Origin: Perkinsus olseni
Taxonomy: Eukaryota > Perkinsozoa > Perkinsida > Perkinsidae
Length of the DNA stretch: 64,000 nt
Direction of reading: 5' to 3'
NCBI GenBank assembly: GCA_013115135.1
Contig: JABANP010000041.1
Location: forward strand, 124,001-188,000
Shown: piece after piece, positions 7,803-47,026 of the stretch
Layout: each line of letters opens with the position of its first letter
Numbering within the stretch: position 1 is the first letter of the stretch
Position numbers and translations under genes: made by a program
The notes under the pieces: model-generated
The model's input: only the letters and a program-made list of their open reading frames with translations
Database searches by the model: none
Told to the model about the DNA's origin: nothing

Positions 7803-7875
7803 GTCAGTGGTGCAGAGACGGTATCTTGAAACCGTCAGAGTCTTGCAAGTTGCACGTAGTCATCACACTGTGACA
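7598..7875 (-). repeat. 3' LTR of the BEL/Pao element (278 bp)
   Basis: Direct repeat of 11692-11948. It contains 14 ATC triplets (7760-7801) against 7 in the other LTR; the remaining bases agree by eye. The stop codon of the pol frame (7863-7865) lies inside it. Confidence 0.95.
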
Positions 7876-11771: not shown

Positions 11772-11948
11772 ATAGCCGAGAGTTGAATTGGTCACTGTGA
11801 TGGATGGAATAAAGACTGAGAACAATCATATACAATTTATACAACGATATACTCATCATCATCATCATCATCATCGTCAGTGGTGCAGAGACGGTATCTT
11901 GAAACCGTCAGAGTCTTGCAAGTTGCACGTAGTCATCACACTGTGACA
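11692..11948 (-). repeat. 5' LTR of the BEL/Pao element (257 bp)
   Basis: In element sense it starts TGTCACAGTG and ends CCACTGTCA. A TATA-like tract (GTATAAATTGTATATG) lies near 11830-11845, a plausible promoter for the pol transcript. The pol frame already opens inside this LTR. Confidence 0.95.
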
Positions 11949-20100: not shown

Positions 20101-23100
20101 GTAGGCACCATGTCGGTCCTCACTGTGAAGACGGATGTTGATGTGTAACAAGTTGATTAACGAGGACTTTCGCTTCCACTGAGACTGTGAGAGTAGTTCA
20201 TCAACTCTTGTAGTAATCACATCAATCGGGAGGACTTCCGAACTCGTCGAAAGGCCGAAGGATCACCGATACAATCATCATCAAGAAGCGTCATGTCGGT
20301 CCTCACTGTGAAGACGGATGTAACTGTATAACAAGTTGAGAAACGAAGACTTTCGCTTTCACTGAGACGGTGAGAGTAATTCATCACCTCTTGTAGTAAT
20401 CACATCAATCGGGAGGACTTCCGAACTCGCCGAAAGGCCGAAGGATCACCGATACAATCATCATCAAGATGCGGCATGTCGGTCCTCACTGTGAAGACGG
20501 ATGTTACTGTATAACAAGTTGAGTAACGGAGTATGCGCTTTCACTGAGACGCTGAGGGTATATCATCAACACTCTCAATAATCACGGCTATCTAAAGGCC
20601 TCCCGAACTCGTCGAAAGGCCGAAGGATCACCGATACAATCATCATCAAGATGCGGCATGTCGGTCCTCACTGTGAAGACGGATGTTACTGTATAACAAG
20701 TTGATTAACGAAGACTTTCGCTTCCACTGAGACTGTGAGAGTAATTCATCAACTCTTGTAGTAATCACATCAATCGGGAGGACTTCCGAGCTCGTCGAAA
20801 GGCCGAAGGATCACCGATACAATCATCATCAAGATGCGGCATGTCGGTCCTCACTGTGAAGACGGATGTTACTGTATAACAAGTTGATTAACGAAGACTT
20901 TCGCTTCCACTGAGACTGTGAGAGTAGTTCATCAACTCTTGTAGTAATCACATCAATCGGGAGGACTTCCGAACTCGTCGAAAGGCCGAAGGATCACCGA
21001 TACAATCATCATCAAGATGCGGCATGTCGGTCCTCACTGTGAAGACGGATGTTACTGTATAACAAGTTGATTAACGAAGACTTTCGCTTCCACTGAGACT
21101 GTGAGAGTAGTTCATCAACTCTTGTAGTAATCACATCAATCGGGAGGACTTCCGAACTCGTCGAAAGGCCGAAGGATCACCGATACAATCATCATCAAGA
21201 AGCGGCATGTCGGTCCTCATTGTGAAGACGGATGTTACTGTATAACAAGTTGATTAACGAAGACTTTCGCTTCCACTGAGACTGTGAGAGTAGTTCATCA
21301 ACTCTTGTAGTAATCACATCAATCGGGAGGACTTCCGAACTCGTCGAAAGGCCGAAGGATCACCGATACAATCATCATCAAGATGCGGCATGTCGGTCCT
21401 CACTGTGAAGACGGATGTTACTGTATAACAAGTTGATTAACGAAGACTTTCGCTTCCACTGAGACTGTGAGAGTAGTTCATCAACTCTTGTAGTAATCAC
21501 ATCAATCGGGAGGACTTCCGAACTCGTCGAAAGGCCGAAGGATCACCGATACAATCATCATCAAGATGCGGCATGTCGGTCCTCACTGTGAAGACGGATG
21601 TTACTGTATAACAAGTTGATTAACGAAGACTTTCGCTTCCACTGAGACTGTGAGAGTAGTTCATCAACTCTTGTAGTAATCACATCAATCGGGAGGACTT
21701 CCGAACTCGTCGAAAGGCCGAAGGATCACCGATACAATCATCATCAAGATGCGGCATGTCGGTCCTCACTGTGAAGACGGATGTTACTGTGTAACAAGTT
21801 GATTAACGAAGACTTTCGCTTCCACTGAGACTGTGAGAGTAGTTCATCAACTCTTGTAGTAATCACATCAATCGGGAGGACTTCCGAACTCGTCGAAAGG
21901 CCGAAGGATCACCGATACAATCATCATCAAGATGCGGCATGTCGGTCCTCACTGTGAAGACGGATGTTACTGTATAACAAGTTGATTAACGAAGACTTTC
22001 GCTTCCACTGAGACTGTGAGAGTAGTTCATCAACTCTTGTAGTAATCACATCAATCGGGAGGACTTCCGAGCTCGTCGAAAGGCCGAAGGATCACCGATA
22101 CAATCATCATCAAGATGCGGCATGTCGGTCCTCACTGTGAAGACGGATGTTACTGTATAACAAGTTGAGTAACGGAGTATGCGCTTTCACTGAGACGGTG
22201 AGGGTATATCATCAACACTCTCAATAATCACGGCTATCTAAAGGACTCCCGAACTCGTCGAAAGGCCGAAGGATCACCGATACAATCATCATCAAGATGC
22301 GGCATGTCGGTCCTCACTGTGAAGACGGATGTTACTGTATAACAAGTTGATTAACGAAGACTTTCGCTTCCACTGAGACTGTGAGAGTAGTTCATCAACT
22401 CTTGTAGTAATCACATCAATCGGGAGGACTTCCGAGCTCGTCGAAAGGCCGAAGGATCACCGATACAATCATCATCAAGATGCGGCATGTCGGTCCTCAC
22501 TGTGAAGACGGATGTTACTGTATAACAAGTTGATTAACGAAGACTTTCGCTTCCACTGAGACTGTGAGAGTAGTTCATCAACTCTTGTAGTAATCACATC
22601 AATCGGGAGGACTTCCGAACTCGTCGAAAGGCCGAAGGATCACCGATACAATCATCATCAAGATGCGGCATGTCGGTCCTCACTGTGAAGACGGATGTTA
22701 CTGTGTAACAAGTTGAGTAACGGAGTATGCGCTTTCACTGAGACGCTGAGGGTATATCATCAACACTCTCAATAATCACGGCTATCTAAAGGACTCCCGA
22801 ACTCGTCGAAAGGCCGAAGGATCACCGATACAATCATCATCAAGATGCGACATGTCGGTCCTCACTGTGAAGACGGATGTTACTGTGTAACAAGTTGATT
22901 AACGAAGACTTTCGCTTCCACTGAGACTGTGAGAGTAGTTCATCAACTCTTGTAGTAATCACATCAATCGGGAGGACTTCCGAACTCGTCGAAAGGCCGA
23001 AGGATCACCGATACAATCATCATCAAGATGCGGCATGTCGGTCCTCACTGTGAAGACGGATGTTACTGTGTAACAAGTTGATTAACGAAGACTTTCGCTT

Positions 23101-25057
23101 CCACTGAGACTGTGAGAGTAGTTCATCAACTCTTGTAGTAATCACATCAATCGGGAGGACTTCCGAACTCGTCGAAAGGCCGAAGGATCACCGATACAAT
23201 CATCATCAAGATGCGGCATGTCGGTCCTCACTGTGAAGACGGATGTTACTGTATAACAAGTTGATTAACGAAGACTTTCGCTTCCACTGAGACTGTGAGA
23301 GTAGTTCATCAACTCTTGTAGTAATCACATCAATCGGGAGGACTTCCGAACTCGTCGAAAGGCCGAAGGATCACCGATACAATCATCATCAAGATGCGGC
23401 ATGTCGGTCCTCACTGTGAAGACGGATGTTAATGTGTAACAAGTTGAGTAACGGAGTATGCGCTTTCACTGAGACGCTGAGGGTATATCATCAACACTCT
23501 CAATAATCACGGCTATCTAAAGGACTCCCGAACTCGTCGAAAGGCCGAAGGATCACCGATACAATCATCATCAAGATGCGGCATGTCGGTCCTCACTGTG
23601 AAGACGGATGTTACTGTGTAACAAGTTGATTAACGAAGACCTTCGCTTCCACCAAGACTGTGAGAGTAGTTCATCAACTCTTGTAGTAATCCCATCAATC
23701 GGGAGGACTTCCGAGCTCGTCGAAAGGCCGAAGGATCACCGATACAATCATCATCAAGATGCGGCATGTCGGTCCTCACTGTGAAGACGGATGTTACTGT
23801 GTAACAAGTTGATTAACGAAGACTTTCGCTTCCACTGAGACTGTGAGAGTAGTTCATCAACTCTTGTAGTAATCACATCAATCGGGAGGACTTCCGAACT
23901 CGTCGAAAGGCCGAAGGATCACCGATACAATCATCATCAAGATGCGGCATGTCGGTCCTCACTGTGAAGACGGATGTTACTGTATAACAAGTTGAGTAAC
24001 GGAGTATGCGCTTTCACTGAGACGCTGAGGGTATATCATCAACACTCTCAATAATCACGGCTATCTAAAGGACTCCCGAACTCGTCGAAAGGCCGAAGGA
24101 TCACCGATACAATCATCATCAAGATGCGGCATGTCGGTCCTCACTGTGAAGACGGATGTTACTGTATAACAAGTTGATTAACGAAGACTTTCGCTTCCAC
24201 TGAGACTGTGAGAGTAGTTCATCAACTCTTGTAGTAATCACATCAATCGGGAGGACTTCCGAACTCGTCGAAAGGCCGAAGGATCACCGATACAATCATC
24301 ATCAAGATGCGGCATGTCGGTCCTCACTGTGAAGACGGATGTTACTGTATAACAAGTTGAGTAACGGAGTATGCGCTTTCACTGAGACTGTGAGAGTAAT
24401 TCGTTAATTCTTGTAGTAATCCCATCAATCGGGAGGACTTCCGAACTCGTCGAAAGGCCGAAGGATCACCGATACAATCATCATCAAGATGCGGCATGTC
24501 GGTCCTCACTGTGAAGACGGATGTTACTGTGTAACAAGTTGATTAACGAAGACTTTCGCTTCCACTGAGACTGTGAGAGTAATTCGTTAATTCTTGTAGT
24601 AATCCCATCAATCGGGAGGACTTCCGAGCTCGTCGAAAGGCCGAAGGATCACCGATACAATCATCATCAAGATGCGGCATGTCGGTCCTCACTGTGAAGA
24701 CGGATGTTACTGTATAACAAGTTGATTAACGAAGACTTTCGCTTCCACTGAGACTGTGAGAGTAGTTCATCAACTCTTGTAGTAATCACATCAATCGGGA
24801 GGACTTCCGAACTCGTCGAAAGGCCGAAGGATCACCGATACAATCATCATCAAGATGCGGCATGTCGGTCCTCACTGTGAAGACGGATGTTACTGTATAA
24901 CAAGTTGATTAACGAAGACTTTAGCTTCCACTGAGACTGTGAGAGTAGTTCATCAACTCTTGTAGTAATCACATCAATCGGGAGGACTTCCGAGCTCGTC
25001 GAAAGGCCGAAGGATCACCGATCCAATCATCATCAAGATGCGGCATGTCGGTCCTCA
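14161..25057 (+). repeat. Satellite array: about 60 tandem copies of a 183-bp monomer, two main variants
   Basis: The anchor ATGTCGGTCCTCACTGTGAA recurs every 182-183 bp from 14171 to 25043. About 95 bp of each monomer (from TCGTCGAAAGGCCGAAGG through TATAACAAGTTGA) hardly varies. The other roughly 88 bp comes in two forms: A with GAAGACTTTCGCTTCCACTG...CACATCAATCGGGAGG, and B with GGAGTATGCGCTTTCACTG...CACGGCTATCTAAAGG, which is about 2 bp shorter. B forms (for example 14589, 16373, 18015, 20527, 22174, 23455, 24001) are roughly one in four and scattered, and a few are A/B hybrids (18386, 24367). No long reading frame is kept. The length is close to a nucleosome repeat. There are no unique spacers, so it is not a CRISPR array. 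Confidence 0.97.
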
Positions 25058-28520: not shown

Positions 28521-30064
28521 ACAGCGCCCAGTCCCACGTAGCCTCTGCCTGTGACGCGCCGCGAGCCACGATTCGGAACACGAAACTCAGATGTCGATTT
28601 TCGCTCCTGCCCTACCGATTTTCCTGTAAATTTGTGACGACACGTGGAATGAGGTATGAAGGTCATAGTTGGTTTTCTGTGGTCTGGGAAAACTCTGCAA
28701 GTGCTTCAACCATACGATACACGAACAGTGGGCGAGCGCTCTTTCATCTGGCCCGGTGACGCAGGGCTCTACTCCGGCTGCCATATTCCGGCACAACCGT
28801 AGTGACGTTTTCATTATTTCCGAGGAGCGCGCCTCAAGCAACCACCCCATTCAATATGAAGCTTTGTCATCAAGTTCATGACAACAACCGTTGTTGGACA
28901 ACATGACAAGTTAGTCAAGTCGATGAGGTCGACAGTTCTGCAGGGCCCCATGCCAGAGACTACAGCTCCACACTACGCTATACCCTTTGGCTACCACGTT
29001 CACTGTTTGAACCAAATCATAGCTGTTTAGCATTTCTAATATCACCACTTATCAACTGCACTTACCTTCTCCCTCTACCCAGCTATCTCTAACTTTCAGG
29101 GGAAACAGCCAATAGCTTGGGCCCCAAGGTGCTGAGCTCCTGCGGTCAATTCGCTAATGATGAGCGGCTAGTCCTGAGTTGACTACCCTTCGGTCTCCGT
29201 CTTCCTTCAACCACCGTTCATCACCATCGTTATCAACTCATGTCCGTCAACGACAAAACATTGAGCGGACATCCTATTGTGCAGCACATGCCTGTGCAGT
29301 GCAGTGTTCTCCCCATGGTTATTTCATGACTGAACGGTGGACTGCTGTGGGTCATCGGAGTCCAATTGATCGGACCAGCTTCCCATCAATGGAGTGCTCC
29401 ACTAACCAGGCTCACTATGTTCATACATCCGTGAGCCCTTTCGCGGCGGACATCTGAATCAGACGCTGACAACAAGGGCTTTCATGCCAGTCGCATGGTA
29501 TTTTGTTACAATTATCTCTGTATTGCCGATCCTGTATGATATATCAGCTCGCTGATCAGCTCCCCGTATTCGAAAGACCAACCGAGTCCGGCTTGCCACA
29601 TGGAGACTATTCATCTCCCCCTTCGTCTCTAGCTTTGGCCAACAAAGTTGATGTTGCTCATATCGTAGAGTTGTGAAAGGATTAGTCATTCTTCTCGAGC
29701 TGCTGTGGCCGGCGCCCCCGAGCGATCGTGGGGCGCCGGGCACAGCTTCATTATGTAGTACTTGAAAAGGGAGGAAAAGGGTCCACAATCGCGGCGCCTC
29801 TTCGGAAAAATCTGTGACACTATACAACCGACTATACAATATGCCAACCGGCAGCTTATACATAGGCCCAATAGTCTGTGTTGGTCTGCACAAAACTTTC
29901 AATGTACCGGGTGCACTGTGCACATTCTCGGCATTCACTCTCATGTGGGATTTGTTCCACGATCCAAAGACCCATGAGTCTTTGGCGAACGTAAAACGAG
30001 CGGTATAGTACTTTCTCCGCCCGCCTTCATCTCTGGCGCCGTGACAAGTAGCCCTAGGCACCTA
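28521..30064. other. Remaining right part of the insertion in the Thr-rich gene; one unassigned minus frame
   Basis: About 1.5 kb between the large TIR element and the point where the split gene resumes. A minus-strand frame of 200 codons (29459-30061) is the longest. It is of mixed composition, has no recognised domain and ends exactly at the gene junction, so I leave it as uncertain. No LTR or TIR partner of the left flank (12545-12593) was found, so the outermost insertion event remains undefined. Confidence 0.4.
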
Positions 30065-30700: not shown

Positions 30701-31821
30701 ATGACTTTTTGGAATGAAGCTTTTGAAGTGTTTGATATACCGCATTTTGTTATGGCCGGCGGTCCAGCATGATGATGTCTTTACCGCTCGTGAAAGAGCT
30801 ATTATGATTGAGTTCCTCGGAGGAAGTCGATTGTGAGGTACGGGAGAGAACCGTAATGTGGTGCAACACTATACTCCCTACCGGCATCCCCCATCAGGAG
30901 GCCTACGCTAGGCGACCTGCGGCCTTCTCGAATATTGGCCCATGATGTGCATCCTCGCATTATTCATTCGACGGAGCGGACTATAGATTGCTGTGATGGT
31001 ATTAGCTGAATCGATCTCAAAGAATGGACGGAAGGAGGTCTTCCCATCCATGGCAATCATCATGTAACGAGCGATGATGGTTAGAGTTTACTTTACCCCG
31101 AGATTTCGTTTGGAACATTGTGGTGATTGTAGGGTAATGCTTGCCTGTAGCAATGGCGTTTGATGAACCGACAGCACCGAGTAACACCCCTGAAGCTACC
31201 GAATGGCAACGCAAAGCATAGATCCGTAACGACCGAGAGAAAAGTTCGTCAAAAAGTCGCTCGTCTTACGTTATTATGGACGGTTCAGAGAGCGTAAAGT
31301 TATTACAAACTCAAAAAATGTTCAGGCTCGGAATGCCCAAACAATCTTAGAAACGGTTTGCCACTCACTGGCTACTTCCTAAAACTGAGCAATAACACGA
31401 GTGTCATCCATTCCTACCCTCCTTCCAGTTGGTAGTCGGGGCACTGTCCGCTTCAGCTTTTGATTCAGGTATCACTCAACAACGACGTATGCGGGCGTCG
31501 AGAGTGGACTATAGACAGCTATGATGACCACAGCAGTCTATAGTCCACTCCGTCGTATGAATCATGCGAGGATGCACATCATGGGCCAATATTCGAGAAG
31601 GTCACAAGTCGCCTAGCGTAGGCCTCCTGATCTAATGCTAGTAGGGAGTATAGTGTTGCACCACCTGTCGGTTCTCTCCCGTACCTCACAATCACCTTCT
31701 TCTGAGGAACTCAATCATAATAGCTCTTTCACGAGCGGTAAAGACATCATCATGCTGGGCCGCCGGCCATAACGAAATGCGGTATATCAAACACTTCAAA
31801 AGCTTCATTCCGAAAAGTCAT
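30701..31821. repeat. Inverted duplication between tail-to-tail Thr-rich genes, with central palindrome
   Basis: 30701-31000 and 31530-31821 are inverted copies of the same 3' flank. The centre has a 13-bp palindrome pair GTGGACTATAGAC/GTCTATAGTCCAC (31505-31517 and 31537-31549). 31017-31430 is the reverse complement of the 3' flank of the other gene family (43700-44090), though no gene body is attached to it here. This is an inverted segmental duplication that puts gene copies 1 and 2 tail to tail. Confidence 0.8.
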
Positions 31822-32772
31822 CTACGTACTCGGGCCGACAGTAGTCGGGGCATCAGTCATCTCGATGGTAGTCGGTGAGGCTCCGGTGGTGACCTCAACG
31901 GAGGTAGCAACACCGGCAGTAGTGATTGCAGCAACAGTCGTAGTCGGGGCATCGGTGGTCACGCCCTCGACCGCAGCTGCTGTGGTGGAGGCTTCAGTAG
32001 TCCCATCAGACTCGTCCTTCTGATCGCGTCCAGCGGCCTCATCGACCGGAGTGGTGACGGAGGCCTCGTCAGTAACAACCGATGCTGAAGTCTCCTCAGA
32101 GGGGGCCGCTGTAGTGGTAGGCTGAGGGGCCGCCACGGTAGTGGTCGCGACAGGAGCATCAGTCGTAGTCGTAGCAACATCGACTGCCGTTGCAGTGGCG
32201 ATCTCGGAGGTGGTAGTCGTGGCCTCGGCATCATCCTTGTCTCTACTGGGAGACTCCCCAGCCGTGATGGTAACGGGCACCTCGTCAGTCACAGGAGCCG
32301 CGGTGGTGACATCAACCTCATCGGTGACGACGGCTGGACTGGTCATCTCGGTGGTGTCCCTAGTAGGAGTAGCCTCAGTAGTTCCCTCGGGAGCCGCCGT
32401 CGTGACCTCAGTGACTTCCTCGACATCGGTTGCTGTAGTAGCCGAACCAGTGGAAGCGTCCTCGCAAGTGCAAGGTACATTGGATAGATGGCAGACGCTA
32501 GGGGTGTCCCAGTACTTACAGTACGAGCCGGGGGTATCCGAGGCACAACCAGCGTCGCAGTTACGAGGAGCTTCAGTCGTCGCACTCGTATCGCAGGAGC
32601 ACGGGGCATCCGAGCCAAAGCAAGTGCTGGGCGTCTTCCAGTATTTACAATAGGACCCGGGATAAGTGGCAGCACAGTCAGCGTCGCACTCAGTGGTAGA
32701 ACCCATCACGTATGTGATACCTTGGAGGGCACTGACGGAGACGACAGCCACGGGGATAGAGCGAAATGGCAT
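31822..32772 (-). CDS. Thr-rich secreted/surface protein, copy 2 (intact, 316 aa)
   Basis: Single-exon gene. The ATG at 32772 follows an in-frame TTG. The N-terminus MPFRSIPVAVVSVSALQG is a likely signal peptide. Two Cys-rich modules follow (about residues 27-62 and 69-105), each with C-x3-C-x7-8-C and SYCKYW then CxC ends; the matching spacing suggests paired disulfides. Residues about 110-316 are a Thr/Ala/Val stalk (repeats like TTAAP, VTDE, TTTT), a mucin-like region fit for O-glycosylation. It ends VGPST without a membrane anchor that I can see, so it is secreted, or wall-bound through other partners. Function unknown. It shares its 3' flank (31530-31821) with copies 3 and 4 and is convergent with copy 1. 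Confidence 0.88.
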   Translation of the reverse strand: MPFRSIPVAVVSVSALQGITYVMGSTTECDADCAATYPGSYCKYWKTPSTCFGSDAPCSCDTSATTEAPRNCDAGCASDTPGSYCKYWDTPSVCHLSNVPCTCEDASTGSATTATDVEEVTEVTTAAPEGTTEATPTRDTTEMTSPAVVTDEVDVTTAAPVTDEVPVTITAGESPSRDKDDAEATTTTSEIATATAVDVATTTTDAPVATTTVAAPQPTTTAAPSEETSASVVTDEASVTTPVDEAAGRDQKDESDGTTEASTTAAAVEGVTTDAPTTTVAAITTAGVATSVEVTTGASPTTIEMTDAPTTVGPST

Positions 32773-34555
32773 CAAGATGGGATGAATGAAGGACTACACT
32801 CTCAGCTAGGTAAGCCACGGAGCCCATTGAACAGGATCCTAGACTTGAAGACGTCCTTACTCAAGAAGTTCCATGAAATATGCCTACATCCGGCTTGATG
32901 GGTAGCCAACGGGACCGTTTCGATCACTGTCGCCGAGAATCATCTCGCCCGAGCGTTTCGGAAGATTCTCCACGTAGTGCGGTGTCCAATTGTTAGAATA
33001 CCGGCAATCCGCCTCGGCCAGCCACCTCTCGTCTATGGACGAGGATGCTCGGGGCACATTTACCCCTATGCAGGGTACATGACATGCAACAGTTTGCAAG
33101 GTTTCCTTAATCCCCCCACCGTTACACAGCAATTGCCGCATGCACTTCAGAGATGAACTACTCCGATCGCAACTCTTGATAGATTATTGGTTCGCTTCAA
33201 AATTACAGTTGACAAATCGTGTGGATTTACATCCGGTGTGTGCCAGTTCCGGTCGCATCGACCATCGCCGGATTAGTTAGATTCAAAGCCGATGTGCTAG
33301 CGTAGTGACGATGAGCTCAGTGTCAAGTCGATCAGTCGGCCCGAATGATGACTCCACGAACAGAGAGAACAGACCATCTCGTTATTCCCTTGATGGGCCC
33401 ATTCTTCATCGTCATGCTGCGGACTCTGCTACAGCTGTGATATAACAGTGCCATACCAGTGTTATACCGCTCGTTGTCGTTGTTCTTCGTTGGCCATTGA
33501 TGATCTCAGCGACGCTCTTAAATCGAGTCACTGGTCACTGACTTGGAATGCATTTGAGTTCCACTCCCGTTACGTGAAACCCTAGTGTTTGACCGTCAAA
33601 CTTTGACGCATAATGTATAATCAGCGGGGACGTTCAGTAAACTGATTCTAATAATCAGAATCGATTCTGAAACTGCATTTACGTGTGAGAACCGATCCCG
33701 AAATCAACTCCGAGTTCCAGAACTAGTTTACCAAGTGGCAACCGATTCCAAGAACCTGCCGAGAATCGATTCTCACACACGACACTTTGGTGATAAAGGA
33801 CGCTTGGCAGCGGTTTCAGGGGAGGTCCGGAGCTCCCACGCGGATTCGCCCGAGTGTCGGACCTCGCATATCTTGGTCGCCACCTAGTGGCCGTTTTACG
33901 CATGTGAGAACCACTGGTCCCTAAGTGCCTGAAATCGAGCCCCAAGCATTAATGTGGAAGGTCACTTGAGGCTTAGTGTGCACTTGAGTTGCTACCTTCG
34001 TGAAAGGTCCCTAAGCTAAGGACCCCTTCAATGAACGGCTGCTCGAGAGAGCCCATGTGAAACCTACTAGTCATCACAACGGTCCTCGAGTGGGCTCGTC
34101 GATAACGTGTGAAACTGACCCCAGACCTTGCTACCTCCGTCGCGTCACGCGTGGAGAAACCTGATTGCACGCGGCAGCAACCGGATTACGTCACCGCGGA
34201 GCAGCTCCCTCGTACTGGACGTCACGTTTCCATCTTTGGGATTGCAGAATCATGATACGCGTGGACGATCCACGGAGACTTTGATATACTCACGGTTGGT
34301 CAACTGGGGTTCTTTCACGGTCATTCCATCAACCCAAGATATTTCTCGAACAGCGTAGTCTTCGATGGGCAGTAGACAGCCGCTAACTGGTCATCGGCGT
34401 CACGATGGATTCCTAAAAAGCCGGGCGAACGTCTACGAGTGGTAGGCTACGACGTCACTAGCAAGGCGTCGGCCTCAGCATATGAGGCACGCTTCCTGCA
34501 TTTGATGGGCTCCATACATTACTTCCTTTGCACGCAGGGTTCTGCCCCGTTCATC
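32773..34555. other. Divergent spacer between Thr-rich copy 2 and the FVYRSK gene
   Basis: The first 470 bp match the 5' flanks of copies 3 and 4 (CGCCCGAGCGTTTCGGAAGA at 32947). 33440-33560 and 34130-34230 match 42100-42210 and 42890-42985. The stretch between (about 33580-34125) has no counterpart there and is rich in repeated GTGTGAGAACC / GTGAAACC words and GAATCGATTC palindromes, so it may be a further decayed insertion. No gene is supported; short frames at 33679-34358 look random. Confidence 0.5.
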
Positions 34556-35575: not shown

Positions 35576-35898
35576 AGGGCACCCTCGTAACAACGGGTGA
35601 CTTCTTTAAACCGTCTGCTATATCAAGAAATACTGCCGGCCGTGAGCGCCGCCGAGTATTCTGTTTTCTCTCGCCACACGTGAGGTTCAGTTATTTGAAG
35701 TAGCCAGTGAGTGGCAGACCGTTTGTTGAATAGTTCGGGCATTCCGCGTCTGAACATTTTTGTTACCATGAGTCTCTAGCAGCTGTACGGTCTTAGAAGC
35801 CATAATACCGGAAGACGAGCAGCTACGTTTTTAATAGACTTTCTTACAGTCGTTAAAAATCCATGTTTCGAGTTACCACAGTGAGTGAGTATCTTCAG
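35576..35898. other. 3' flank of the FVYRSK gene (duplicated unit)
   Basis: Matches 43643-43925 (for example GAGTATTCTGTTTT and AAGTAGCCAGTGAGTGGCAG). It runs to the insertion point of the 1.2-kb transposon and continues after it at 37121. Nothing else seen. Confidence 0.6.
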
Positions 35899-36100
35899 CG
35901 GTGTAGTCCAACTGGGGCAGTGCCAATTCGGACAGTGGTCAATTCGTACACTTCCCAACTGGGACAGGGGCAAGTCGGACACTCGTGTCAAGGTGGTGCC
36001 AAGTCGGGCACCTCAACTCAGTACCAACTGAGACATTACCGATAGAGACACCACGAAACGCTCATTCGGACAGTACCAACTCGGACACTTACCTGCCCGG

Positions 36101-36152
36101 CCATATGAGCTTGATTTTTCGCGAACCGTTCGCGAAAATCAAGCTCATATGG
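36101..36152. repeat. Near-perfect 25-bp hairpin
   Basis: The left arm starts CCATATGAGCTTGATTTT and the right arm ends AAAATCAAGCTCATATGG. There is one bulged T and a one-base centre (36127). It lies between the left arm and the tRNA-like segment of the 1.2-kb element. Confidence 0.92.
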
Positions 36153-36202
36153 CTACTGCGCGCACGTCGACACCACTGGTTCGGGTATGGCCTCCGGGAT
36201 AT

Positions 36203-36272
36203 CCCTGGCGGGGATCGAACCTGGGTCGCCAGCACGTTAGCCCAGCGTCTTAACCGCTAGACCAATAGTACC
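36203..36272 (-). other. 70-nt tRNA-like segment with A and B boxes
   Basis: On the minus strand TGGTCTAGCGG matches the Pol III A box and GGTTCGATCCC the B box, at tRNA-like spacing. The T-stem has two mismatches and the acceptor ends do not pair, so it is not a working tRNA. It points toward the hairpin 50 nt downstream. Confidence 0.6.
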
Positions 36273-37120
36273 TTTACGACTTTGTCGCGAGTTTTGGGCC
36301 CTTAGCTCCCGAGGTCCCTTGCTGCCACGCGGCACAATAATCTTTTTTCAACGAACTTATGTTGGGTCGGTCTCGAAACTACCTCTATTTGCCCCTCACG
36401 CGTGGTGTCTATCACATAATGACCATAACGTCGGTGGCCTTACTGAGTTTGGCCAGCGCTTCGCTAGAATAAAAGCCTGGGACGCGCGTCGTCAGCCAAC
36501 CCAGACCCGCAACTTGCAGGCCGCAAGCTACATCGGAGAGGGCTAGTGCGGCTACGTTTCCGGCGGAAACTTTACGCAGTATGGTGGGACATCCTGGGCT
36601 GAAGCGCCAGTCCGTCTGAAGGAAGTCGAGTATATCCAATACTTAAGGGCTTGCAGTGCCACGCTCGCACGTTCCAGGCCATCCAAAAAGTACGGTGATG
36701 CGAACTCTGGCAGTAATTCTGATTGCCTAGTAATCAATTTTCAACCTATGCCCTTACATGTGAAGCTGCATGTGCCCGGAGCTTTTTTAACCTATTCCTT
36801 ACAATTCGAATATTGCTTCTCTTACGGTGTGTGTCTTCTTCTGGTTCGGTTGAGTTTCTCCCTTCTCAAGGAATATGCATTGAGTCACTGGGTGCAAAGC
36901 AACCGTCTCAGTTGGCACTGTACGAGTTGTAGTGGCGAGCGAAGTGTCACTGTCCCAAGTGGTCCTGTCTGAATTGGTCCAGGTCGCCCAGCCGTTTTTG
37001 TCCGACTTGCCACTGACTCAGTTGGCAGTGTCCGAATCTGAGCTGTACGGGTTGATACCTTGTACGAGTTGACCACTGTCCGAATTGGCACTGCCTCAGT
37101 TGGGATACACCCATCTTCAG

Positions 37121-37609
37121 GAGTTATCGCTCGGTGTTGTTGATTCATTAAGCATAATTGAAGCAGTCCCGCAAAAAACAGATCTCTCTTTTTGTCACGA
37201 ATTTCAACGTAAACTGAACACACGTCATTTTCGCTTGCTGCCTGATGATTGCTAATAGCGAACGCAATGGCGATCCGCTTGAGAAAGATAAAATTTTCTT
37301 CCATCCGTTACAGCTGATACCATCACAGCAGTCCACTCCGAGGAATGACCCATGCGAGGATACACATCATAGGCAGTTCAACTCAAAAGACAATGCGCCT
37401 ACCATGGTCCTCCTGATTGGCGATGTCGGTTGGGATTATAGTGTTGCACCACCTGTCGGTTCTCTCACGTACCTCACAATCAACTTAGTCTGAGGAACTC
37501 AACTATGATAGCTCTTTCACGCGCGGTAAAGACATCATCGTGCTGGGCCGCCGGCCATAACAAAATGCGGTATATCAAACACTCCAAAAGCTTCATTCCA
37601 GAAAGTCAT
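37121..37609. other. 3' flank shared by both families (between units 1 and 2)
   Basis: Continuation of the FVYRSK 3' flank after the transposon, then the 3' flank of Thr-rich copy 3 (matches 31530-31821 and 44100-44390). No gene. Confidence 0.6.
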
Positions 37610-38560
37610 CTACGTACTCGGGCCGACAGTATTCGGGGCATCAGTCACCTCGATGGTAGTCGGTGAGGCTTCGGTGGTGACCTCAACGGAGGTAGCAACA
37701 CTGGCCGTAGTGATTGCAGCAACAGTCGTAGTCGGGGCATCGGTGGTCACGCCCTCGACCGCAGCTGCTGTGGTGGAGGCTTCAGTAGTCCCATCAGACT
37801 CGTCCTTCTGATCGCGTCCAGCGGCCTCATCGACCGGAGTGGTGACGGAGGCCTCGTCAGTAACAACCGATGGTGTAGTCTCCTCAGAGGGGGCCGCTGT
37901 AGTGGTAGGCTGAAAGGCCGCCACGGTAGTGGTCGCGACAGGAGCATCAGTCGTAGTCGTAGCAACATCGACTGCCGTTGCTGTGGCGATCTCGGAGGTG
38001 GTAGTCGTAGCCTCGGCATCATCCTTGTCTCTACCGGGAGACTCCCCAGCCGCGGTGGTAACGGGCACCTCGTCAGTCACAGGAGCCGCGGTGGTGACAT
38101 CAACCTCATCGGTCACGACGGCTGGACTGGTCATCTCTGTGGTGTCCCCAGTAGGAGTAGCCTCAGCAGTTCCCTCGGGAGCCGCCGTTGTGACCTCAGT
38201 AACTTCCTCGACATCGGTTGCTGTAGTAGCCGAACCAGTGGAAGTGTCCTCGCAAGTGCAAGGTACATTGGATAGATGGCAGACGCTAGGGGTGTCCCAA
38301 TACTTACAGTACGAGCCGGGGGTATCCGAGGCACAACCAGCGTCGCAGTTACGAGGAGCTTCAGTCGTCGCACTCGTATTGCAGGAGCACGGGGTATCCG
38401 AGCCAAAGCAAGTGCTGGGCGTCTTCCAGTATTTACAATAGGACCCGGGATAAGTGGCAGCACAGTCAGCGTCGCACTCAGTGGTAGAACCCATCACGTA
38501 TGCGATACCTTGGAGGGCACTGAAGAAGACGACAGCCACGGGGATAGAGCGAAATGGCAT
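37610..38560 (-). CDS. Thr-rich secreted/surface protein, copy 3 (intact, 316 aa)
   Basis: ATG at 38560. Same layout as copy 2: signal peptide (PVAVVFFSALQG), two Cys-rich SYCKYW modules, long Thr/Ala/Val stalk ending VGPST. It differs from copies 2 and 4 at scattered residues (for example an Asn in place of Asp before TSATT, and AAFQPTT in place of AAPQPTT), most of them single substitutions that keep the frame, which suggests selection for the protein or recent gene conversion. Its 5' flank is interrupted 118 bp upstream of the ATG by the 1.3-kb TIR element, which may have cut away promoter elements. Confidence 0.88.
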   Translation of the reverse strand: MPFRSIPVAVVFFSALQGIAYVMGSTTECDADCAATYPGSYCKYWKTPSTCFGSDTPCSCNTSATTEAPRNCDAGCASDTPGSYCKYWDTPSVCHLSNVPCTCEDTSTGSATTATDVEEVTEVTTAAPEGTAEATPTGDTTEMTSPAVVTDEVDVTTAAPVTDEVPVTTAAGESPGRDKDDAEATTTTSEIATATAVDVATTTTDAPVATTTVAAFQPTTTAAPSEETTPSVVTDEASVTTPVDEAAGRDQKDESDGTTEASTTAAAVEGVTTDAPTTTVAAITTASVATSVEVTTEASPTTIEVTDAPNTVGPST

Positions 38561-39591
38561 CAAGATGGGATGAAAGAAGGACTATGCACCCAGCGAGCTA
38601 AGTCAGTCGCGGAATCCCTCAATCAGATCCGGCTAGTTTTGTAGCGTACGGTATAGATCACTGTCGCCGAGAATCATGGGTGTATCTCATCTCATCCAGT
38701 ATAATTACATCCATCGTGCAGTTCGCCCAAAGGTGCAACTCGTCCATCTCAATTCACCCAGTATAAATTCGCCCATTCTAATTTCATCCAGTGTGACAGT
38801 TTTGCTGTCCCCAGAGGGATTTTGAAACCGTGATGGACGAAATCACCCAGTCTCATCTCATCCAGGACCCGGACAAAGTTGCAACACAAAGCATACAGTG
38901 GCATCAGAAACATCCATGATTGTACTTCACAGTTCAATCGGTCGATCTTAACCGCGACCATATACTAAACGTTGTTGAGATCAAAAAGGACACGCGTGAT
39001 TAACTTCACAAATCATTTAGGAAAACCCTTGATTAGAGACACGCTCGGAGCTCCGCTTAGTGGAAGAGCCTCGTCCACTTTGACTCCCTCTAGCTCTAGT
39101 GAGCGCAGCGCTGCAAATCCTCAAGTAAGTGATATATTGGACATCAGGCAGCTGAACGGGGGTAGGGTGCCAGGGCCTGGCAGCCAGGGTGTACCACAGT
39201 ACTCTGGAAAATTGACATTGTAAGCTCGTTCAAGGGTTAAGGGTTCGCACTCTTTGCGGTTGTTGGTGGGCTTGCGGGAGTTATCTCCACATTGCAAGCG
39301 ATGAAACAAACGATCATACTCGTCATATTGATCAGTTTCAACGAGAAGAATATGATAAAACCCAGGATGGCGCACCGATATCAAATTGTTGAGAGTATGA
39401 TGATAAGCTTCTGCTAAGTTAGACGTCCTATCATCCGGACGTCATGGATCCGGCATGGTTCACGAGAGCGATGTAGAACTACAAGACCAGAAGGAATAAC
39501 GGAAAGCGCGATTGAACGTTTGTAAATGGAACAGGTCGGCTTCAGCAGGGAACCCAGAAGCAAGCGAAAATAGGTGCTTCAATTACGAAAG

Positions 39592-39661
39592 AGCTGTGGT
39601 ATAGCGGTTAGTACGTTGGGCCAGCACGCGAGAGACTCAAGTTCGATCCCGGCCACCAGCT
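39592..39661 (+). other. 70-nt tRNA-like segment with A and B boxes
   Basis: TGGTATAGCGG (A box) and AGTTCGATCCC (B box). The ends AGCTGTGG and CCACCAGCT can pair as an acceptor-like stem with one bulge. The T-stem is poor, so a working tRNA is unlikely. It reads toward the hairpin, whose first arm begins with six T, a Pol III stop signal. Confidence 0.6.
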
Positions 39662-39712
39662 ATCGAGGGTGCCGGCCATCAGGGCACAGAGTGATGGCAG
39701 GCCGGCGGCGGA

Positions 39713-39761
39713 TTTTTTCACATGCCATCGCGAAGCGGCTTCGCGATGGCATGTGAAAAAA
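39713..39761. repeat. Perfect 24-bp hairpin
   Basis: Arms TTTTTTCACATGCCATCG... and ...CGATGGCATGTGAAAAAA pair over 24 bp with a single-base centre at 39737. Confidence 0.95.
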
Positions 39762-39971
39762 TTCGGTGGATGAAAAAACACCTGGGCGAAAAGATACTGG
39801 ATGAAATAGAACTGGGTGAAATGAGAATTTGCATTTTTGGGCGCTCTTTGATGGATGAAATGAGCCGGGTGAAATTGCACTGGATGGAATGGCCGTGGGC
39901 GAGATAAGATTGGATGAGTTGAGTGATGGATGAAATTATACCGGATGAGATGGGTAACACCGGAGAATCAT

Positions 39972-44390: not shown

Positions 44391-45341
44391 CTACGTACTC
44401 GGGCCGACAGTAGTCGGGGCATCAGTCATCTCGATGGTAGTCGGTGAGGCTCCGGTGGTGACCTCAACGGAGGTAGCAACACCGGCAGTAGTGATTGCAG
44501 CAACAGTCGTAGTCGGGGCATCGGTGGTCACGCCCTCGACCGCAGCTGCAGTGGTGGAGGCTTCAGTAGTCCCATCAGACTCGTCCTTCTGATCGCGTCC
44601 AGCGGCCTCATCGACCGGAGTGGTGACGGAGGCCTCGTCAGTAACAACCGATGGTGTAGTCTCCTCAGAGGGGGCCGCTGTAGTGGTAGGCTGAGGGGCC
44701 GCCACGGTAGTGGTCGCGACAGGAGCATCAGTCGTAGTCGTAGCAACATCGACTGCGGTTGCGGTGGCGACCTCGGAGGTGGTAGTCGTGGCCTCGGCAT
44801 CATCCTTGTCTCTACCGGGAGACTCCCCAGCCGCGGTGGTAACGGGCACCTCGTCAGTCACAGGAGCCGCGGTGGTGACATCAACCTCATCGGTGACGAC
44901 GGCTGGACTGGTCATCTCTGTGGTGTCCCCAGTAGGAGTAGCCTCAGTAGTTCCCTCGGGAGCCGCCGTTGTGACCTCAGTAGCTTCCTCGACATCGGTT
45001 GCTGTAGTAGCCGAACCAGTGGAAGTGTCCTCGCAAGTGCAAGGTACATTGGATAGATGGCAGACGCTAGGGGTGTCCCAGTACTTACAGTACGAGCCGG
45101 GGGTATCCGAGGCACAACCAGCGTCGCAGTTACGAGGAGCTTCAGTCGTCGCACTCGTATCGCAGGAGCACGGGGCATCCGACCCAAAGCAAGTGCTGGG
45201 CGTCTTCCAGTATTTACAATAGGACCCGGGATAAGTGGCAGCACAGTCAGCGTCGCACTCAGTGGTGGAACCTATCACGTATGTGATACCTTGGAGGACA
45301 CTGAAGAAGACGACAGCTACGGGGATAGAGCGAAATGGCAT
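44391..45341 (-). CDS. Thr-rich secreted/surface protein, copy 4 (intact, 316 aa)
   Basis: ATG at 45341. Signal peptide PVAVVFFSVLQG, two Cys-rich SYCKYW modules and a Thr/Ala/Val stalk ending VGPST, nearly identical to copies 2 and 3. Its 5' flank (45342-45850) is uninterrupted and so represents the ancestral upstream region, including the CGCCCGAGCGTTTCGGAAGA block at 45462. It is the last member of the array before single-copy genes resume. Confidence 0.88.
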   Translation of the reverse strand: MPFRSIPVAVVFFSVLQGITYVIGSTTECDADCAATYPGSYCKYWKTPSTCFGSDAPCSCDTSATTEAPRNCDAGCASDTPGSYCKYWDTPSVCHLSNVPCTCEDTSTGSATTATDVEEATEVTTAAPEGTTEATPTGDTTEMTSPAVVTDEVDVTTAAPVTDEVPVTTAAGESPGRDKDDAEATTTTSEVATATAVDVATTTTDAPVATTTVAAPQPTTTAAPSEETTPSVVTDEASVTTPVDEAAGRDQKDESDGTTEASTTAAAVEGVTTDAPTTTVAAITTAGVATSVEVTTGASPTTIEMTDAPTTVGPST

Positions 45342-47026
45342 CAAGATGGGATGAAAGAAGGACTATGCACCCAGCGAGCTACGCCAGTCGCGGAATCCCT
45401 CAAGCAGATCCGGCTTGTTTTGTAGCGTACGGTATAGATCACTGTCGCCGAGAATCATCTCGCCCGAGCGTTTCGGAAGATGCTCCACGCAGTGCGGTGT
45501 CCAATTGTTAGCGGTGCGACTGACAACGCATGGGTTCTTGCTGAAGAGTCTTCAGTGAAGACTAGTAGTCTCCCTCGGGTAATCGTTGCCTGTCTATGAT
45601 CGAGGATGTTCTCCGAAGCAGTCTAAGTACATTTATCCCTAAGCAGGCGTGCAGCAGGTTGCAATGCTGTAGTAAATTTCTCACTTTTACACAGCAGTTG
45701 CCTCAAAGCACTTCACGAGATGAACTACTCCGACTGCAACGCGAAGAGTCGTGATACGCTTCGATATCACAGTTGACAAATAGTGTGGATACACATCCGG
45801 TGTGTGCCAGTTCGAGGTCCAAAAGTTATCGCCGGTTTAGTTGGTTTTCAAACTGTATGCCCGACCTTGGTTTCGAGAGTAAGGATTCGAATTGCTCATA
45901 CATCGCCTACCGAGGTGAGATGAGGAACCCATCTTGAAGATGGACGCGGTTATGGCGCGATAATTATCCGCATCGATTAGGGCCAGTTCCCTCTTCGACA
46001 GTCCGGCGTCCATCGTCGAAATGGATACGTGCTGTCTGGCTCGGCTGCGAGGAGAGAATAGACGTCTGTTATGAGATGTATCGAGGATGGTGGTGAACAT
46101 CACTACGAGTCGGTTGAGGCAACGAACGTCAAAGGCTCAGAGGGGCCAGTCCGGTCTGAGTTCACTCTCTCGACTACGAGTAGTATGGTCGGCTTGTGCC
46201 CGTGTAATGCACGCATTGGCAGTCGACGCCCTCGATACTGCAGCACCGGCCTACCGTTAGCGGGGCACCACCTTTTGTGTTATCATTCGGTGCGCTCATC
46301 GCTTGAAGAAACTTGAGCCGCGCGACAACCTGGTTGTTGGATTTCTCAGAATCCCGAATCATCGTCCCCACCTCCAGTCCGACCTTTCAGCACTCTGAGC
46401 TAGTCTTCAGCGCCAAACAGGATAGGGAAAGTCACCACGTGCTAAGTCATTACGCCACCTGTCTTTGTTATAGACGTGCTGTGTTTTCACTAAGCCCGAG
46501 ACCGCGCCCACCAGCATACCCTTATTCAGAGTGGTCCCGGAGGCGGCCGACGGTCTCTCGACTATTCCTGACTCGGTCGAAATCCCTTCCACTTTGGTTT
46601 GATACTTGAAACGACTCTCGGGCCTTCCCAGAAACATTCACTCTTTGTGAGACATGCTTATCAAGTCACATATACAGCATACGATTCCACTTTCGTCTCC
46701 CACTCAGCTTCTTCGATTCATACTCTCGCCACCGTTGAAGTGACCGAGGCACTCCCCGAGTCATCGCCTTCGACCAATTCTCTCGTCTCTTTTGTATCCT
46801 GGCTGCCCTCCTTTCATGCATTCGGCGTGGTAGCTCTCAGTGAGTTGAAGTGGCTGACCATAAAAACGCTCCGTCGACTAGACACCATCAGTAATGACAC
46901 TCACAAACCCCATTTGATTTTGCCTGGCCAATTCATGAGGACCCGCCGAGAGAACGACTTGCCAGCAGCGAACTTCCGTCCAGCACCTCGTTGGTATCTG
47001 CAGAAATCCGCGATTTTCACGAGGGA
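45342..47026. other. End of the duplicated unit and a 1.1-kb stretch of uncertain content
   Basis: 45342-45850 is the Thr-rich 5' flank. From 45850 to 47026 frames on both strands reach 90-150 codons (longest 46599-47054, plus), but none has a recognisable motif or consistent exon structure, so I make no gene call. Confidence 0.4.

What the first reader, a model, noticed from the sequence alone, without database searches (positions are those of the whole stretch)
35899..39962. A transposon class with word-repeat arms, tRNA-like segment and hairpin
35899-37112 and 38678-39962 have almost no internal sequence in common, yet share terminal GGTGT, 8-9 bp target duplications, about 200-bp arms built from one short word repeated every 13-18 bp, and a 70-nt A-box/B-box segment. 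That segment is followed about 50 nt later by a 24-25 bp hairpin. The word is different in each element (CATCCAGTATAATT versus CAATTCGGACAGTG). This suggests binding words that change between families while the plan is kept, and a Pol III transcript ending in or through a hairpin. I know of no described superfamily with this combination.
Basis: seen in the sequence. Interest (0 to 1): 0.9.

Follow-up and report, generated by a model that had tools for sequence, protein, structure and literature searches.

The report
Mutator transposons with tRNA-promoter hairpin cassette
Two short stretches of the Perkinsus olseni genome are cut-down jumping genes of the Mutator kind, from a group of at least four families there whose copies carry a tRNA-promoter-like segment pointing at a near-perfect hairpin beside one end, which is likely a built-in transcription unit that works on the jumping gene itself.

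Summary
Both stretches are transposons with GGTGT ends, 8- and 9-bp target duplications, word-repeat arms, an A-box/B-box segment and a hairpin of about 24 bp. They are not a new superfamily: both carry remnants of one transposase, and a longer copy of the same family (contig C14) encodes a 440-aa frame that just passes Pfam's MULE cut-off. The host is Perkinsus olseni. The plan recurs in four families: 5' arm, hairpin, tRNA-like segment antisense to the transposase and aimed at the hairpin, transposase, 3' arm. The words are diverged forms of one word. Hairpin stems differ between families but stay paired (20 of 24 pairs covary). In 27 of 30 units the first T4+ run after the B-box lies in the hairpin's first arm, so a Pol III transcript would end in the hairpin, not pass through it. 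In one pair of copies the tRNA-like segment plus linker differs at 25% of sites while the rest differs at 0.5%; the A- and B-boxes are largely kept. I read the cassette as a Pol III unit acting in cis on the 5' arm. Transcription and function are untested. Five of 21 arm-anchored places lack part or all of it; one related MULE lacks it entirely. No description was found in the searches made.

The parts
35899..37112 (+). Element 1, non-autonomous MULE copy of family 1, 1214 bp; transposase direction is +
   Evidence: 8-bp duplication ATCTTCAG at 35891-35898 and 37113-37120; longer family-1 copy at C14
35899..36098 (+). Element 1 5' arm of word repeats (CAACTCGGACAGT)
   Evidence: EM motif; 1.7% mean difference in seven pairs of family-1 copies
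36100..36153 (.). Element 1 hairpin, apex TCGCGAACCGTTCGCGA, one bulged base, T-run in the arm met first from the tRNA-like side
36197..36275 (-). Element 1 tRNA-like segment (A-box and B-box within 36212-36264; outer limits approximate), antisense to the transposase and aimed at the hairpin
36337..36699 (+). Element 1 remnant of the transposase C-terminal part, in pieces with a stop
   Evidence: own-genome protein hits C346:160337-160420, 160430-160690 and 160442-160699
36890..37112 (-). Element 1 3' arm of inverted word repeats
38678..39962 (-). Element 2, non-autonomous MULE copy of family 2, 1285 bp; transposase direction is -
   Evidence: 9-bp duplication GAGAATCAT at 38669-38677 and 39963-39971
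38678..38866 (+). Element 2 3' arm of word repeats (TCATTTCATCCAG)
39068..39444 (-). Element 2 remnant of the same transposase (two pieces, one in-frame stop)
   Evidence: C346:163068-163184 and 163151-163444
39590..39665 (+). Element 2 tRNA-like segment (A-box and B-box within 39597-39649; outer limits approximate)
39712..39762 (.). Element 2 hairpin, 24 bp, no mismatch, TTTTTT at its 5' base
39767..39962 (-). Element 2 5' arm of inverted word repeats

Best explanation
Both elements are non-autonomous members of a Perkinsus olseni lineage of Mutator-like (MULE) DNA transposons whose 5' terminal arm is joined to a conserved cassette, a hairpin plus an A-box/B-box segment, that is likely an RNA polymerase III transcription unit acting in cis. 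Shown from sequence: the MULE-type protein, the 8-9 bp duplications, the arms built from diverged forms of one word, the order 5' arm - hairpin - tRNA-like segment (antisense to the transposase) - transposase - 3' arm, the covarying hairpin stems, and a first T4+ run that sits in the hairpin's first arm. Inferred: the words are transposase binding sites; TFIIIC/TFIIIB bind the boxes; Pol III starts at the tRNA-like segment and stops in the hairpin's T-run, giving an RNA of roughly 115-145 nt; this keeps the 5' arm open and walls it off from transcription or silencing. The boxes persist while the DNA between and after them changes faster (4 to 46 times in six pairs) than the rest of the same copies, which fits a transcribed, mutation-prone stretch whose promoter is kept.
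For: Transposase: C14 440-aa frame, PF10551 28.0 bits against a cut-off of 27.6; D-G-T and D-F-E blocks conserved in the five lineages whose core could be aligned. Target duplications: 15 of 24 paired ends exact at 8-10 bp, end shifts of one base allowed, and 4 more of 7 bp or with one mismatch. Plan: family 1, family 2, family 3 C325, family 4 with 40 places in the genome. Hairpin apex pattern 28 sites against 3 for its reversed control. Stem covariation: 97.2% of cells paired (shuffled 69.9%), 20 of 24 pairs with changes on both sides, sliding the partner drops pairing to at most 43.6%. First T4+ run after the B-box in the hairpin's first arm in 27 of 30 units; all five distinct stems have such a run, against 0.08 to 0.51 expected per stem from shuffling its letters. 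Divergence, family 1, seven pairs: linker 0.23, A-box 0.02, B-box 0.06, hairpin 0.01, arm 0.02. C14 against C967: 29/114 in tRNA-like plus linker, 7/1264 in the rest of the element, 2/253 in arm plus hairpin; C499 against C36: 21/112, 22/1294, 1/264. Internal-deletion copies C476, C967, C501 and the family-4 MITEs kept the cassette while losing transposase coding.
Against: No RNA, chromatin or transposition data were available. Rfam's tRNA model found no match at E up to 10 in the 11 units among 13 loci searched, although the 63 tRNAs scored in this genome reach 65-75 bits, so the segment is a promoter-like relic and not a tRNA. Copies with duplications but damaged cassettes exist: L082 (9-bp duplication, no hairpin) and C202:32045-33075 (CTATTGAAC on both sides, lost from mid tRNA-like segment to the last 15 bp of the arm). 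C159 has both arms and a transposase frame but no cassette and no duplication. A related MULE, C359, has word arms and an 8-bp duplication but no cassette. The excess of change is small in some pairs (C476/C967 3/105 against 4/1265; C36/C57 4/109 against 12/1328). In family 2 the 75 bp upstream of the tRNA-like segment are as variable as the linker (0.26 and 0.21). In family 4b the linker is only about three times as variable as the hairpin (0.118 against 0.037) and the B-box is 0.093. The conserved boxes could also reflect selection on DNA binding without transcription.
Confidence: 0.6

Rival explanations
1. The cassette makes a small RNA: Pol III reads tRNA-like segment and hairpin together, and the hairpin is released and diced, as in the tRNA-miRNA RNAs of a murine gammaherpesvirus.
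For: Order and spacing resemble that arrangement as I recall it (one search gave only a listing of papers and the starts of abstracts); stems of 20-27 bp without mismatch in most units and covariation; two family-1 hairpins match the mir-5595 precursor model at E 6e-8 to 1e-6 (47-52 bits).
Against: In 27 of 30 units a run of 4 to 7 T lies in the first arm of the hairpin, before the loop, so most transcripts would stop before the hairpin is complete. The mir-5595 matches are on both strands and far below its gathering score of 100 bits.
Confidence: 0.12
2. The hairpin and boxes act only as DNA: the palindrome extrudes or is bound by transposase or host proteins, and TFIIIC bound at the boxes is a boundary without transcription.
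For: The palindrome is symmetric and near-invariant within families 1 and 2; boxes are kept but the tRNA fold is not.
Against: It does not predict the T-run in the hairpin, nor why in family 1 the fast-changing stretch runs from the tRNA-like start to the hairpin and stops there, leaving the arm beyond unchanged.
Confidence: 0.2
3. The cassette is a passenger: a tRNA-derived insertion in an ancestral element, inherited without function.
For: Some copies lack parts of it and still have target duplications (L082, C202); C359 does without it.
Against: Kept in families whose transposases are as little as 24-27% identical; boxes and stems are conserved while their surroundings change; kept in internal-deletion copies and MITEs.
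Confidence: 0.1
4. The cassette arose or was exchanged several times by recombination between families; fast change of the tRNA-like part is cassette swapping and not mutation.
For: Hairpin apex is shared while neighbouring DNA is not; different tRNA-like middles occur beside near-identical hairpins in family 4a and 4b.
Against: No near-identical donor for C14's tRNA-like part plus linker among 16 other units of families 1-3: the best is about 88% of aligned letters (87 of 99, and 83 of 94) in a gap-tolerant alignment. Only 17 units were compared.
Confidence: 0.25

Closest known systems
Mutator-like elements (MULE, MuDR superfamily)
   Same: PF10551-type transposase, long TIRs, 8-9 bp target duplications (superfamily features from passages of PMC6446971)
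   Different: That survey has no occurrence of 'tRNA' and one of 'hairpin' (about siRNA) in its main text (its supplements were not seen); the Pol III-like cassette and word-built arms here are additional
VANDAL MULEs and their VANC anti-silencing proteins (Arabidopsis)
   Same: Dense same-orientation arrays of a short word that changes between families of one MULE group (passages of PMC5735166)
   Different: There the words lie in non-coding regions (introns, intergenic and terminal) and VANDALs lack TIRs or have short degenerate ones (passages); here the words build the two inverted arms; a VANC-like protein was not searched for
Dada transposons
   Same: DNA transposons linked with tRNA genes; five tRNA-inserted families in Perkinsus marinus (passages of PMC3706591)
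   Different: Dada inserts into tRNA or snRNA genes with 6-7 bp duplications; Dada-U6 and Dada-U1 are described there without terminal inverted repeats; here the tRNA-like segment is inside the element and the duplications are 8-9 bp
tRNA-derived SINEs
   Same: A/B-box tRNA-related segment (recalled)
   Different: Here it sits inside inverted arms of a DNA transposon that also has transposase-bearing copies
tRNA-miRNA RNAs (TMERs) of a murine gammaherpesvirus
   Same: tRNA-like segment followed by hairpin (recalled; only a listing seen)
   Different: Here a T-run lies in the first hairpin arm, so the hairpin would not be completed
Foldback elements (FB, TU, Galileo)
   Same: Long inverted arms built of short internal repeats (recalled)
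   Different: Transposase type and Pol III-like cassette

Membership tests
MULE / Mutator superfamily | Transposase with MULE DDE domain (PF10551) | tested here: met
   C14 28.0 bits against a cut-off of 27.6; a 317-aa piece of C325 24.8 bits, below the cut-off. Elements 1 and 2 hold only remnants of this protein
MULE / Mutator superfamily | Target duplication of 8-11 bp | tested here: met
   8 bp and 9 bp for the two elements; 15 of 24 pairs exact at 8-10 bp, 4 near, 5 none. None seen for C325 (ends read by eye)
MULE / Mutator superfamily | Long terminal inverted repeats | tested here: met
   Arms of about 190-265 bp of inverted word repeats in families 1-4
Dada | Insertion into tRNA or snRNA genes with 6-7 bp duplication | tested here: not met
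   Duplications are 8-9 bp; the tRNA-like segment lies inside the element
VANDAL | Absent or degenerate terminal inverted repeats | tested here: not met
   Inverted word arms present
VANDAL | VANC anti-silencing gene | not tested
   Only forward-strand frames of C14 and C325 were listed, no second long frame there; no homology search for VANC
tRNA-derived SINE | Whole element is Pol III transcribed with a retrotransposed tail | tested here: not met
   Copies are bounded by the arm ends and 8-9 bp duplications, with transposase-bearing relatives
Pol III type 2 transcription unit | A-box and B-box at tRNA-like spacing, downstream T4+ terminator | tested here: met
   Sequence features only
Pol III type 2 transcription unit | Transcript made by Pol III | not testable with these tools
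   No RNA data held
tRNA gene | tRNA cloverleaf recognised by the Rfam tRNA model | tested here: not met
   No tRNA match at E up to 10 in 11 units among 13 loci; ARAGORN 0 in the window

The most novel reading that the evidence does not exclude
A lineage of cut-and-paste MULE transposons depends in cis on its own Pol III transcript: the RNA that starts at the tRNA-like segment and ends inside the palindrome licenses the adjacent 5' arm for transposition or shields it from silencing, and its body evolves under an arms race with the host while promoter boxes and terminator stem are kept.
Probability: 0.17. Interest if true: 0.87.

Novelty: new variant of a known kind. Interest (0 to 1): 0.7.

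Why it matters
DNA transposons are not known to me to carry a dedicated Pol III promoter with a structured terminator as a fixed part of their plan. If the cassette works as read, it links tRNA-type transcription to cut-and-paste transposition and gives a natural series of families in which word, promoter, stem and transposase have diverged side by side. The local excess of change (25% against 0.5% in one pair of copies) is itself a testable case of mutation or exchange confined to a predicted Pol III transcript.

Tried and rejected
New superfamily: rejected, the protein is a MULE. Real tRNA gene: rejected. Dada: rejected on duplication size and position. Unrelated words: rejected, a common core, chosen after seeing the words, is enriched in all eight arm sets (six families). 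Chance hairpins: rejected. A covariance model was built but this genome cannot be searched with one. Protein search of the 5.8-billion set with the C14 frame gave three P. olseni proteins among the 7996 candidates scored, so other hosts could not be compared. Transposase tree: families 1-3 form one group, family 4 with C551 another, C359 a third branch; with no outgroup it does not say whether C359 lost the cassette or never had it. My count of family-4 places (40) is by grouping the 73 matches by hand. EM control used fewer starts for shuffles than for the real arms; repeated with equal settings for elements 1 and 2. The EM word for family 4 came out of phase; I quote that word by eye. In one search the script mis-picked the B-box in C325 and L063; the T-run result is the same with the right one. 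In one search the script printed 'noB' for two L073 units whose B-box differs by one base; I count them as having one. C902 is counted as having a tRNA-like segment although its middle is disrupted and its B-box has one change. Literature searches that listed no such transposon: (open-licence papers only; listings, few papers opened). A high mutation rate of tRNA genes is recalled; the search for it did not list the paper I had in mind.
Full report
What is in the window. Elements 1 (35899-37112) and 2 (38678-39962) are as described: GGTGT ends, exact 8-bp and 9-bp target duplications, arms of about 190-220 bp built of a word repeated about 20 times per pair of arms, an A-box/B-box segment, and a hairpin about 60 nt further on. 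Compared with each other, the two have one significant DNA match, the tRNA-like segment (59 nt, 76%), and one clear protein match, a piece of transposase (42% over 43 aa).

Host and superfamily. The window lies in an assembly of 61.5 Mb and 968 contigs. Two protein hits named Perkinsus olseni sit on contigs of 51,548 and 36,023 bases, the lengths of C325 and C476. A longer family-1 copy at C14:71712-74580, with duplication GTTGTGTCC, encodes a 440-aa frame that just passes the Pfam MULE cut-off (28.0 against 27.6 bits). The 8-11 bp duplications and TIRs of hundreds of bases are stated MULE features (PMC6446971, passages seen).

The plan and its families. Taken in transposase direction the order is 5' arm, hairpin, tRNA-like segment on the opposite strand and aimed at the hairpin, transposase, 3' arm. 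The full order with a long transposase is seen in C14 (family 1) and in C325 (family 3, whose frame is shifted once and which shows no duplication by eye). Family 2 (element 2, C499 and others) shows it with transposase remnants. Family 4 was found through a unit beside another MULE; its unit matches 40 places (grouped by hand from 73 matches). The eight family-4 pairs of ends without transposase measure 495 to 861 bp. A transposase goes with family-4 arms at C159, C424 and C24; it is 24-27% identical to families 1 and 3. C424 keeps tRNA-like segment, hairpin and 5' arm, but a nested element splits the tRNA-like part and its 3' arm was not seen; C24 has lost its 5' end; C159 lacks the cassette.

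The words. EM motifs are CAACTCGGACAGT (family 1), TCATTTCATCCAG (family 2) and AACTCGGGCAGTT (family 3); family 4 reads ACTCGTACAC by eye. The core [AT][CT]TC[AG][TG][AC]CA occurs 3 to 20 times in each of eight arm sets from six families against shuffled means of 0.07 to 0.33. So the word changes between families, but as divergence of one word.

The hairpin. The apex pattern TCGCGAA-n-TTCGCGA has 28 sites against 3 for the reversed pattern. Of the 28, 18 have a tRNA-like segment beside them. Of the other 10, 5 are derivatives with arms (C18, C74, C385, C273, C233:7776), 3 show no such unit (C68:127819, C73, C182) and 2 were not fetched (C620, C799). Across 18 aligned units the stem is 97.2% paired; 20 of 24 pairs are changed on both sides in some sequence and three never vary. 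The rows are related and fall into few families, so these are few independent events counted many times. In family 4, 14 units were found by a strict apex pattern in 15 loci scanned, and 13 have a B-box upstream.

The tRNA-like segment. It is not a tRNA by Rfam (11 units in 13 loci) or ARAGORN (window), although the 63 tRNAs scored in this genome reach 65-75 bits. In seven family-1 pairs the mean difference is A-box 0.02, B-box 0.06, middle 0.10, linker 0.23, hairpin 0.01, arm 0.02; the few bases before the A-box stand at 0.26 because of one 22-base insertion in C516 and changes in C14. In seven family-2 pairs it is A-box 0, B-box 0.03, linker 0.21, hairpin 0.04, arm 0.01, but the DNA upstream also differs (0.26). 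Family 4a gives A-box 0.02, B-box 0.07, linker 0.26, hairpin 0.09; family 4b gives 0.04, 0.09, 0.12, 0.04, a weak contrast. In single pairs the contrast can be large: C14 and C967 differ at 29 of 114 sites in tRNA-like plus linker but at 7 of 1264 in the rest, and C499 and C36 at 21 of 112 against 22 of 1294. It is smaller in C476/C967 (3 of 105 against 4 of 1265) and C36/C57 (4 of 109 against 12 of 1328). So the change looks episodic. C967 and C476 have lost much of the transposase, so the rest of their sequence is a rough neutral yardstick, and loss of constraint alone does not explain the excess. No near-identical donor was found among 16 other units.

The terminator. In 27 of 30 units the first run of four or more T after the B-box lies in the first arm of the hairpin; the three others are C656, L063 (an extra T-run just upstream) and one unit of L065. 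Units of a family share a stem, so this is five distinct stems; shuffling the letters of each arm gives such a run with frequency 0.11, 0.10, 0.12, 0.51 and 0.08. A Pol III transcript would therefore stop inside the hairpin. This speaks against the hairpin as an RNA product and for the hairpin as stop site or block. That is inference from sequence.

How often the cassette is missing. Two searches used only outer 5'-arm sequence. Family 1: 14 places with the 5' arm, 12 read across the inner junction, 10 with both parts (one of them, C902, with a disrupted tRNA-like segment) and 2 with hairpin only (C273, C84). Family 2: 10 places, 9 read, 6 with both, C68 with tRNA-like only, C233:7902 with hairpin only, C736 with neither. 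Places that match only a 3' arm were not followed. Of the 15 exact-duplication copies, one is C359, which shows no cassette; of the other 14, 13 have both parts and L082 lacks the hairpin. Most of those were found through cassette or transposase queries, so that fraction is biased upward; the arm-only counts are less so. C202:32045-33075, with CTATTGAAC on both sides (read by eye), has lost part of the segment, the hairpin and most of the arm. Whether these losses came before or after insertion cannot be told.

Mechanism. I read the cassette as a Pol III type-2 unit kept beside the 5' arm, where it most likely acts in cis: TFIIIC/TFIIIB occupancy and short transcription, stopped by the palindrome, would keep the arm (predicted transposase sites and transposase promoter) open and separate from neighbours. 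The identity of the elements is well supported, the Pol III reading moderately, the cis role weakly.

Novelty. MULE membership makes this a known kind. The cassette as a fixed part of a DNA transposon plan was not listed in searches, which cover open-licence papers only.

Noticed in passing
window 14163-25057: Long 183-bp satellite array. A tRNA array on C778 has the same 183-bp spacing in part, but no tRNA was found in the window's array.
   Followed up: no
window 7863-11825 (-): 1320-aa frame with Pao-type peptidase, reverse transcriptase and integrase zinc domain: a BEL/Pao-like retrotransposon.
   Followed up: no
window 31822-32775, 37610-38563, 44391-45344 (-): Three near-identical 317-aa genes with two cysteine-rich repeats and a threonine-rich tail; one lies between the two elements; no Pfam match for the one tested.
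   Followed up: no
C424:20490-20555, C24:15040-15100, C159:60110-60165 (approximate): Family-4 elements with transposase carry a second tRNA-like segment just inside the 3' end, in the same direction as the first, reading antisense into the transposase (read by eye).
   Followed up: partly
C424:22920-24625 (approximate): Another word-repeat element (word around CAGTAAATA) inserted into the tRNA-like segment of a family-4 copy.
   Followed up: no
C359:14516-17351: MULE with word arms (TTTCGTCCATGATC), duplication GTAGTAGA, but no tRNA-like segment or hairpin found.
   Followed up: partly
C537:20552-20670: Two further perfect palindromes of 31 and 24 bp near the other end of a family-2 copy.
   Followed up: no
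C73:47501-47551: Palindrome of 24 bp with the same apex motif but no arms or A/B-boxes seen beside it.
   Followed up: no
window 29702-29746 and 31502-31550: Two more stem-loops of 17 and 19 bp with one mismatch; no word arms seen in the few hundred bases printed around them.
   Followed up: no
linker of several units, e.g. window 36154-36196 and L004:1470-1515: GC-rich mini-palindromes (GCGCGC... or CCGGCGG...) between the B-box and the main hairpin, differing between copies.
   Followed up: partly
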